Below are positions 1 to 1,770 of a DNA stretch of 42,094 nucleotides, piece after piece. Origin of the DNA: Spirochaetaceae bacterium. GTDB taxonomy: Bacteria; Spirochaetota; Spirochaetia; DSM-27196; SKKC01. Location: positions 1 to 42,094 of the forward strand of contig RECN01000086.1 of the NCBI GenBank assembly GCA_007694005.1. Reading direction: 5' to 3'. The translations under genes were made by a program, and so were the position numbers. The notes beneath the pieces are model-generated. The model searched no databases and was not told where the DNA came from. It saw only the letters and a program-made list of their open reading frames with translations. Each line of letters begins with the position of its first letter. Position 1 is the stretch's first letter.

Positions 1-19
1 AAGGAGGTATGATAAAAAG

Positions 20-200
20 CAAACCGTGAGCCGGTGGGTTAGAATACCGCCTGAAATCAAATGATTTGAGGCGGACCGGGAGCTGCTCGTCATGCTTGAT
101 AGCCTGCGAGGCTGAGAAGGAGAATGAGGAGCGGTTACCGCAGCGTGCAATGACCTGCGAGGTCGAATAGGAGAGTGGCACGATCCACCGCAAAGGACTC
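20..200 (+). ncRNA. Putative bridge RNA of the IS110 element
   Basis: The non-coding left end folds by eye into three units. First, a 5' stem-loop: CCGCCT 47-52 with AGGCGG 69-74, extended by AAATCA 54-59 with TGATTT 62-67. Second, a loop closed by GCTCGTCAT 85-93 with ATGAGGAGC 124-132 (one mismatch), holding the hairpin AGCC-TGCGA-GGCT at 101-113. Third, a loop closed by CGTGC 144-148 with GCACG 178-182, holding the hairpin GACC-TGCGA-GGTC at 152-164. Known: IS110-group elements encode a bridge RNA upstream of the transposase, with a 5' stem-loop followed by target- and donor-binding loops. The RNA ends are guesses, and I could not assign the guide bases. Confidence 0.6.
22..41 (+). repeat. 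Left copy of a subterminal direct repeat of the IS
   Basis: AACCGTGAGCCGG followed by TGGGTTA matches 1333-1355 (AACCATGAGCCGG, an extra AGG, TGGCTTA) in the same orientation, with two mismatches and one 3-nt indel. The copies lie about 15 nt inside each end of the element. Confidence 0.55.
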
Positions 201-227
201 CGGCTCAAATTGAGAGAGGAGAGCGAG

Positions 228-1334
228 ATGCGAATGAGTGTAGGAGTAGATCTTCACAAGAGTCAGTTCACGGTGTACTGGCGAAGCGACGACGGGATTA
301 CCGGGAGGCACGAGCGGTATGGGACTACCCAAGACGGGTATCGGCGATTTGAGATGGCGGTGCAGTCGGTGATGGAGACCGGGACAGCGGTAGAGGTTGC
401 CGTGGAGTCCACGGGAAATACGCGGTACTTCAAACAACGCCTTGAGCGATGTGGCGTACCGGTACGGGTGGTCAACACGGCGAAGTTCAAAGTGGTGACC
501 GAGTCGGTGAAGAAGACCGACCGGCACGATGCGGCGACGCTGGCGGAGTTCCTGGAGAAGGACATGTTGCCGGAGGCGCATCTGTGCTCACCGGAGAGTG
601 AAGAGCTGCGGCGGGTGATCAAGACGCGCAAGACGCTGGTGGAGACGATCGTCACGGTGAAGAACCAGCTGCATGGGCTGCTGTTGAGCCTGGGGATTGA
701 ATCGAAGCGCGGGCAATTGCAGAGCGCAAGAGAACGCCGGCGCGTGAAAAGCGTGCTCGCGGCACATCACGTCGCCGGCAACGCGGTAGAACCGCTGTTT
801 GAAACGATAGACCGACTGTCGGCGGAGGTCAAGACGCTTGACCGGGTGATTGCGGAGATGACCGAGGACGACGAGGTTGTGCAGCTGATCAAGACTATCC
901 CGGGAGCGGGATTGATTACCGCAGCGACGATCCGGGCGTTTACCGACGACATCAGCCGGTACCCAACAGCTGGGAAGTACGCTGCGTATGCCGGGCTGGT
1001 CCCGTGGGTACAGAATTCGAATGAGACGATCCACCACGGACGAATCACGAAGCGAGGTCCGGTGGAGCTGAGAACGGCACTGGTACAGGTCGTGCTGGGT
1101 ATGGTGCGCGTCCGCCGACGTACCGGAACGTACCGAATAATTCAGCGGTATGACCGGATGAAACGAATCAAGGGGTCCGGGCGGAGCATTATCGCGACGG
1201 CTCGACAACTCAGCGAGATCATCTACCGGATGCTTACCGACGGAGTTCCGTTTGATGAGATGAAAATGGTTGATCCGGTGATTCATCGGAAAGTCGTGGA
1301 AATGCAGGCGGCGGCATACGACGTCGCATCGTAA
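228..1334 (+). CDS. IS110-family DEDD transposase (recombinase)
   Basis: This is a 368-aa recombinase that would move the element guided by its bridge RNA. The N-terminal RuvC-like (DEDD) domain shows D8 in VGVDLHK, E60 in AVESTGN, and D98 and D101 in KTDRHDA. The C-terminal Transposase_20 domain starts near residue 222 (IPGAG) and contains YAGLVPW then S264 in VQNSNET, the position of the catalytic serine in IS110 enzymes. The length is normal for the family and there is no frameshift, so it looks intact. I choose ATG 228 because AGGAG at 216-220 is well spaced; an in-frame TTG at 210 would add six residues. Confidence 0.93.
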   Translation: MRMSVGVDLHKSQFTVYWRSDDGITGRHERYGTTQDGYRRFEMAVQSVMETGTAVEVAVESTGNTRYFKQRLERCGVPVRVVNTAKFKVVTESVKKTDRHDAATLAEFLEKDMLPEAHLCSPESEELRRVIKTRKTLVETIVTVKNQLHGLLLSLGIESKRGQLQSARERRRVKSVLAAHHVAGNAVEPLFETIDRLSAEVKTLDRVIAEMTEDDEVVQLIKTIPGAGLITAATIRAFTDDISRYPTAGKYAAYAGLVPWVQNSNETIHHGRITKRGPVELRTALVQVVLGMVRVRRRTGTYRIIQRYDRMKRIKGSGRSIIATARQLSEIIYRMLTDGVPFDEMKMVDPVIHRKVVEMQAAAYDVAS

Positions 1335-1355
1335 CCATGAGCCGGAGGTGGCTTA
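1333..1355 (+). repeat. Right copy of the subterminal direct repeat of the IS
   Basis: This is the partner of 22-41. It begins inside the transposase stop codon (TAA 1332-1334), so the coding sequence runs right up to the right-end repeat. Confidence 0.55.
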
Positions 1356-1358
1356 CGG

Positions 1359-1364
1359 TTGACT
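1359..1364 (+). promoter_or_regulatory. Outward -35-like hexamer in the IS right end
   Basis: TTGACT lies in the right end. If the ends are joined in a circle keeping one AGGAGG, TAAAAA at 13-18 of the left end falls 17 nt downstream and could form a junction promoter for the bridge RNA. A better -10 (TATGAT, 8-13) would then be only 12 nt away. The joint sequence is inferred, so the pairing is tentative. Confidence 0.35.
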
Positions 1365-1380
1365 TTTTATAGGAGGGAGT

Positions 1381-1770
1381 ATGAGCGGGCGAGCCGTAGA
1401 CATCATACAGACACAGACGGCGCCTGGGGCGATCGGGCCGTATAATCAGGCTGTTATTGCCGGTGATACCATGTATATCTCGGGACAGCTTCCGCTGACA
1501 CCACAGGGCGAGCCCGTCTTTGACGCGATCGAAGAAGCAGCGGAACAGGCTCTTTCGAACCTGTGTGCCATCCTTGCATCTGCGGAGGGAAGCTGGCAGT
1601 TTGTTCAGGTGAGAATTTATCTCAGATCCATGGCCGACTATCCTGTCGTGAATGCAGTGTATGAGAAGCTGATTCCAGCGCCTTTTCCGGCCCGTGCTGT
1701 CGTAGAGGTTGCGGGTCTGCCGAAAGACGCGCCTCTCGAAGTGGAGGCGACGGCCATCCGTACGGGATGA
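1381..1770 (+). CDS. ridA: RidA family reactive imine/enamine deaminase
   Basis: This 129-aa YjgF/RidA/UK114 protein hydrolyses reactive 2-aminoacrylate and related imines released by PLP enzymes and so protects those enzymes. The sequence carries the family core: GPYNQAV near residue 19, YISGQLPL near 32, and PARAVVEVAGLP near 103 with R105, the substrate-carboxylate arginine. The start ATG has AGGAGG at 1371-1376 four bases upstream, immediately after the right end of the IS110 element. Its native promoter is therefore cut off, although its ribosome-binding site survives. The stop codon overlaps an upstream ATG of hisI (ATGA), so the two are probably co-transcribed. Trimer formation in the cytosol is the family norm. 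Confidence 0.93.
   Translation: MSGRAVDIIQTQTAPGAIGPYNQAVIAGDTMYISGQLPLTPQGEPVFDAIEEAAEQALSNLCAILASAEGSWQFVQVRIYLRSMADYPVVNAVYEKLIPAPFPARAVVEVAGLPKDAPLEVEATAIRTG

What the first reader, a model, noticed from the sequence alone, without database searches (positions are those of the whole stretch)
20..200. Two-loop bridge-RNA-like fold in the left end of a new IS110 element
Seen: a 5' stem-loop (47-74) followed by two larger closed loops (85-132 and 144-182), each holding a small hairpin with the same loop sequence (CC-TGCGA-GG in both). This is the order described for bridge RNAs of IS110-group elements, which carry the RNA upstream of the transposase. The two inner hairpins, AGCCTGCGAGGCT and GACCTGCGAGGTC, differ by compensating changes in their outer pairs, which argues for selection on structure. 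Inference: the side strands of the two internal loops (94-100 with 114-123; 149-151 with 165-177) hold the target and donor guides. I could not match them convincingly to the ends.
Basis: partly seen in the sequence, partly recalled or inferred. Interest (0 to 1): 0.75.

Follow-up and report, generated by a model that had tools for sequence, protein, structure and literature searches.

The report
Jumping gene that targets gene starts
A small bacterial jumping gene carries a guide RNA that matches the ribosome-landing sequence in front of genes, and in every copy checked it has inserted exactly there and rebuilt that sequence, so it can enter the doorstep of many genes while probably leaving them readable.

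Summary
The window begins at the left end of a 1,369-bp IS110-family element. Its RNA (about 24-190) is conserved and covaries in 18 relatives. The guides match the DNA ends: the left donor guide equals the element's right end, the right donor guide covaries with its left end, and the left target guide covaries with the flanking target. That target is the Shine-Dalgarno sequence of a gene: all 41 distinct right-end sites read GGAG, then ATG 3-8 nt later. Empty sites in relatives confirm one case. Insertion rebuilds GGAG for the downstream gene. Perfect left-guide matches elsewhere in the same genomes are followed by ATG only 12/66 times, so the start codon also matters, by guide pairing or by selection. 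The element mixes subgroup traits: RNA upstream of the transposase (IS110-like), but guide order, roughly 20-bp subterminal repeats and a donor loop inside a multiloop (IS1111-like). Its transposase falls in neither reference clade. A mycobacterial precedent, IS900, targets translation-initiation sites. Hence a new variant of a known kind. No activity has been tested.

The parts
3..1375 (+). whole element with GGAG at both ends (1,369 bp counting GGAG once); bases 1-2 are target DNA
   Evidence: left and right ends shared by all relatives; empty site of another copy
7..11 (+). right donor sequence GTATG next to the left GGAG
   Evidence: covaries with RDG across 20 element types
12..32 (+). 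left subterminal inverted repeat ATAAAAAGCAAACCGTGAGCC; TAAAAA at 13-18 is the putative -10 of the circle-junction promoter
32..40 (+). outer helix, 5' strand, pairs with 182-190
   Evidence: 5 of 8 pairs change on both sides, 90.8% of cells paired
47..74 (+). 5' stem-loop of the bridge RNA
78..139 (+). target-binding loop with its stem and inner hairpin
94..99 (+). right target guide strand, preceded by conserved CAT 91-93
   Evidence: weak match to right flanks, p about 0.001-0.002 before correction for registers tried
115..122 (+). left target guide AGAAGGAG (Shine-Dalgarno)
   Evidence: covaries with left flank, p 1e-4
144..148 (+). right donor guide CGTGC
   Evidence: covaries with 7-11, p 1e-4 by type, 0.01 on unique pairs
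151..165 (+). donor-loop inner hairpin
   Evidence: 100% paired, 3 of 5 pairs change on both sides
167..173 (+). left donor guide ATAGGAG
   Evidence: equals right end ATAGGAG; ATA with ATA 24, ATG with ATG 22, no exception
182..190 (+). outer helix, 3' strand
228..1334 (+). IS110-family transposase, 368 aa, DEDD D8 E60 D98 D101 and serine S264
1350..1370 (-). right subterminal inverted repeat; TTGACT 1359-1364 (plus strand) is the putative -35 of the junction promoter
1369..1375 (+). left donor sequence ATA plus GGAG, the new Shine-Dalgarno of the downstream gene
1376..1383 (+). right target GGAGT and start codon ATG of the RidA-like gene 1381-1770

Best explanation
This is an IS110-family element whose left end encodes a bridge RNA of about 165 nt. 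Shown by sequence: the donor loop matches the element's own two ends and the left guide of the target loop matches the flanking target, with covariation between element types; the target is the Shine-Dalgarno sequence of a gene just before its ATG. Inferred: the element leaves as a circle whose joined ends make a promoter (TTGACT, 17 nt, TAAAA). The RNA made from it loads the recombinase (DEDD plus serine), which exchanges strands of circle and target within the shared GGAG. After insertion the old Shine-Dalgarno stays on the left and the element's right end supplies ATAGGAG to the downstream gene, so the element sits in a transcribed leader and the gene probably stays translatable. Whether the start codon is read directly, through the conserved CAT before the right target guide, or is only kept by selection, is open.
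For: Fold far better than shuffles. Helices covary in 18 relatives. Left donor guide equals right end in 46 of 46. Right donor guide covaries with left end, p 1e-4. Left target guide covaries with flanks at independent sites, p 1e-4. 41 of 41 distinct right-end sites have ATG 3-8 nt after GGAG, against 10-14% of GGAG sites in four of the same genomes. Orthologous empty sites equal the joined flanks. Catalytic residues conserved. Junction spacer of exactly 17 nt in all 14 elements inspected.
Against: No RNA, protein or transposition data. The GGAG part of the guides never varies, so it carries no covariation; the signal lies in 2-3 bases beside it. The right target guide is only weakly supported. 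The window's own right donor guide pairs with its left end only through two G-T wobbles. The left target flank of the window copy is only two bases long (contig end).
Confidence: 0.88

Rival explanations
1. The bridge RNA recognises only a short purine motif of about 7 nt. Insertions occur wherever the motif is found and most others are purged, leaving those that do no harm in front of start codons.
For: The right target guide is weakly supported. Most of a bacterial genome is coding, where insertion would break genes.
Against: 24 of 24 insertions against 12 of 66 perfect left-guide sites have the ATG, and spacing is tighter than in ordinary genes (30/39 against 51/118 at 5-6 nt, p 4e-4). No insertion inside a gene was seen among 41 sites.
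Confidence: 0.4
2. The recombinase itself, not the RNA, reads GGAG, and the guide-like strands resemble the ends by shared descent.
For: GGAG is constant in guides, donor ends and nearly all targets, so that part shows no covariation.
Against: Genomic flanks are not inherited with the element, yet the bases beside GGAG follow the guide of each element type (TAA, AAA, TTA, ATG). Donor guides change together with the ends.
Confidence: 0.05
3. The fold is a cis-acting leader that controls transposase translation and not a guide RNA.
For: It lies directly upstream of the transposase start, and the strands contain GGAG-AATG, which resembles a start site.
Against: Four loop strands match or track the four DNA half-sites in the expected pairing sense, which a leader would not do. 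One relative (L021) has the RNA downstream of its transposase.
Confidence: 0.04

Closest known systems
IS621 and the IS110 group with bridge RNA (PMC11208160, PMC11208158)
   Same: RNA in the left end upstream of the transposase; 5' stem-loop, target loop, donor loop; DEDD plus serine recombinase; junction promoter; guides matching target and donor.
   Different: Guides are on the opposite strands of both loops (here right guide 5', left guide 3'; IS621 the reverse). Subterminal repeats of about 20 bp against the 2-3 bp reported for the IS110 group. Donor strands in a multiloop. Shine-Dalgarno target instead of REP.
IS1111 group with seekRNA (PMC11187229)
   Same: Guide order (top-strand complement 5' of bottom-strand match), long subterminal inverted repeats, donor strands in a multiloop as reported for many IS1111 members.
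   Different: RNA lies upstream of the transposase. The transposase is not inside the IS4321 clade.
IS900 (IS110 family, Mycobacterium avium subsp. paratuberculosis; PMC8141618, citing Doran 1997)
   Same: Targets translation-initiation sites: reported motif CATGNNNNNNTCTCCTT, the complement of AAGGAGA-N6-CATG.
   Different: As the motif is written there, IS900 would lie opposite to the target gene, while here element and gene are co-oriented. No bridge RNA of IS900 was found in the papers searched. IS900 itself was not tested here.

Membership tests
IS110 family | DEDD RuvC-like domain plus Transposase_20 domain with serine | tested here: met
   Pfam and NCBIfam hits above cut-off; residues aligned with IS621
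IS110 family | No target duplication; precise insertion at a specific site | tested here: met
   Empty site equals joined flanks with GGAG counted once
Bridge RNA / seekRNA | Structured RNA with target and donor loops, supported by covariation | tested here: met
Bridge RNA / seekRNA | Guides complementary to target and donor | tested here: met
   LTG, LDG and RDG met; RTG only suggestive
Bridge RNA / seekRNA | RNA bound by the recombinase and needed for transposition | not testable with these tools
   needs bench work
IS110 group (IS621-like) | RNA in the left end, upstream of the transposase | tested here: met
   window 78-190 and relatives
IS110 group (IS621-like) | Guide order left guide 5', right guide 3' | tested here: not met
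   order reversed
IS110 group (IS621-like) | No or very short subterminal repeats | tested here: not met
   about 20 bp imperfect repeats covarying between the ends, p 1e-4
IS1111 group | RNA downstream of the transposase | tested here: not met
   upstream in the window; downstream only in relative L021
IS1111 group | Transposase within the IS1111 clade | tested here: inconclusive
   separate lineage; grouping with IS1111 not rejected, p-AU 0.11, few references

The most novel reading that the evidence does not exclude
A bridge RNA that reads the whole bacterial gene start: the left guide pairs with the Shine-Dalgarno and the right side, with its conserved CAT, pairs with the ATG, so the element targets a functional class of sites (gene starts) rather than one sequence. 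The clade combines IS1111-type guide order and repeats with an IS110-type RNA position and so links the two known groups.
Probability: 0.35. Interest if true: 0.78.

Novelty: new variant of a known kind. Interest (0 to 1): 0.62.

Why it matters
It would be a natural RNA-guided recombinase whose programme is a signal shared by thousands of genes and which rebuilds that signal on insertion. That would explain how such an element can spread with little harm to its host, and it gives a set of relatives in which guides and targets can be read off together. It also breaks the reported rule that RNA position, guide order and repeat length go together, which makes the split between IS110 and IS1111 testable. 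It suggests that the long-known preference of IS900 for translation-initiation sites may have the same RNA basis.

Tried and rejected
Rfam search of the window: only two tRNAs. Empty site for the window's own RidA locus: no DNA match in six spirochaete genomes, so the empty-site test was done on a copy in G126. A mini-ORF starting at the ATG of the right donor (GGAGGTATGATAA) was considered and dropped because variants GCACG, GTAAG and GTCTG lack ATG. For the right target guide, ATG-anchored and GGAG-anchored registers are about equally supported, so no register is claimed. ISEc11 coordinates taken from the paper were not held. A first regular expression picked the wrong CCG for the right donor guide in some types; redone. 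The covariance model found nothing significant in the IS621, ISEc21 or IS4321 reference loci, so it is specific to this clade.

Full report
WHAT IS THERE. The window starts at base 1 of a contig (G000:C85), at the left end of an insertion sequence. The transposase (228-1334) matches Pfam DEDD_Tnp_IS110 and Transposase_20 and NCBIfam 'IS110 family RNA-guided transposase' above its cut-off. The DEDD residues (D8, E60, D98, D101) are invariant in 21 aligned proteins, and the serine that IS621 uses as nucleophile aligns with S264 (20 of 21). The right end is at 1371/1375, five bases before the ATG of a RidA-like gene. Counting GGAG once, the element is 1,369 bp.

STRUCTURE. Folding of the single sequence is far better than shuffles (z -4.8). 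I aligned 18 related RNAs from spirochaete genomes. The consensus has an outer helix, a target-loop stem and two inner hairpins, with 13 of 28 pairs changing on both sides. Counts: 95.2% of cells paired against 84.4 +/- 0.9 in shuffles; 69 double-change cells against 23.5 +/- 4.9; slid controls give 4-11. The shuffles do not remove relatedness but the slid controls keep it, and they agree. The 5' stem-loop aligns poorly, but each sequence folds a hairpin there with different letters. The donor strands sit in a multiloop closed by 32-40/182-190.

GUIDES AGAINST DNA. I collected 46 distinct left ends and 42 right ends and extracted the loop strands by element type. Left donor guide: ATA with right end ATA in 24 elements, ATG with ATG in 22, no exception. 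Right donor guide: CATTC with GAATG, CATAC with GTATG, CGTGC with GCACG; permuting guides between types gives p = 1e-4, or 0.01 on unique pairs. Left target guide: types with TAA, AAA, TTA or ATG before GGAG sit mostly in targets with the same letters (2.89 of 4 matches against 2.16 +/- 0.14, p = 1e-4). This is the strongest point, because flanks at independent genomic sites are not inherited with the element. Right target guide: one register reaches p about 0.001-0.002 among those tried, which is suggestive only.

TARGET. All 41 distinct right-end sites (leaving out the inner copy of a tandem right end in L005) have ATG 3-8 bases after GGAG; two of them (L040, L094) open only short frames. 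In 400 kb of four of the same genomes, 10-14% of GGAG sites do; of sites matching the left guide perfectly 12 of 66 do, against 24 of 24 insertions in those genomes (p 3e-13). Spacing is 5-6 bases in 30/39 insertions against 51/118 ordinary genes (p 4e-4). So either the start codon is part of what is recognised (the loop has a conserved CAT just before the right guide, paired with ATG of the other strand in the unbound fold), or selection removes other insertions, or both. An empty site confirms the geometry: in the genus of G126 a relative reads AATAAGATAATGGGAGGTCATTATG where G126 has GATAATGGGAG, the element, GGAG, GTCATTATG. Distant relatives at about 35% identity in Lentisphaerota and a 'Clostridia' bin (L025-L027) also sit at such sites (read by eye).

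MECHANISM. By analogy with IS621 and seekRNA elements (PMC11208160, PMC11208158, PMC11187229) the element would circularise. The junction joins TTGACT in the right end to TAAAA in the left end at exactly 17 bases in all 14 elements inspected, which would be a promoter starting the RNA near base 24-27. Recombination within GGAG leaves the old Shine-Dalgarno on the left and gives the downstream gene ATAGGAG from the element. No terminator-like site lies on the plus strand of the element (a simple scan). Not shown: RNA production and binding, circularisation, transposition and the effect on translation.

PLACE AMONG KNOWN SYSTEMS. IS621 has the left guides on the 5' strand of each loop (visible in IS621 DNA); IS1111 elements have the opposite order. 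This element has the IS1111 order, IS1111-like long subterminal repeats whose inner halves covary between the ends (p 1e-4) and a multiloop donor region, but its RNA is upstream as in IS110. The transposase forms its own lineage (96/92), within neither the IS621 nor the IS4321 clade; grouping with IS1111 is not rejected (p-AU 0.11). One relative, L021, has the RNA downstream of its transposase (E 4e-9), so the RNA may have moved within this clade; this rests on one locus. Targeting of translation-initiation sites is known for IS900 (PMC8141618), apparently in the opposite orientation and without a described RNA in the papers I could search. No paper in the library holds 'bridge RNA' together with 'Shine-Dalgarno' and 'insertion sequence', but the library lacks most subscription journals and preprints.

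VERDICT. It belongs to the IS110 family, subgroup unassigned: a new variant of a known kind with an unusual and testable target logic.

Noticed in passing
L021:3558-3672, compared with L043:1223-1342 (minus strand): The RNA lies downstream of the transposase in L021 but upstream in its nearest kin L043 (60% aa identity), so its position may have switched within this clade.
   Followed up: partly
window 7-11 and 144-148: The window's left-end sequence GTATG pairs with its own right donor guide CGTGC only through two G-T wobbles, while close relatives with the same guide have GCACG.
   Followed up: no
L005:3634-3679: Two tandem right ends (TTGAGCTCACGG.TGACTTTTTATAGGAG repeated) at one insertion, perhaps the scar of an earlier event.
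   Followed up: no
L039 donor loop, about 1415-1451: An insertion of about 23 nt inside the left donor guide strand of an otherwise similar RNA.
   Followed up: no
L004 (G000:C20:1-157): A second, 74% identical partial left end in the same genome, cut by a contig end, with target TTGAAAGGAG.
   Followed up: partly
L002 (G000:C119): Another IS110-type transposase fragment, 28% identical, in the same genome.
   Followed up: no
L025, L026, L027, L032: Distant relatives in Lentisphaerota and a 'Clostridia' bin have left-end RNAs with AAAGGAG and ATAGGAG strands; the three with a right end in hand (L025-L027) also sit before start codons, so the Shine-Dalgarno programme looks old.
   Followed up: partly
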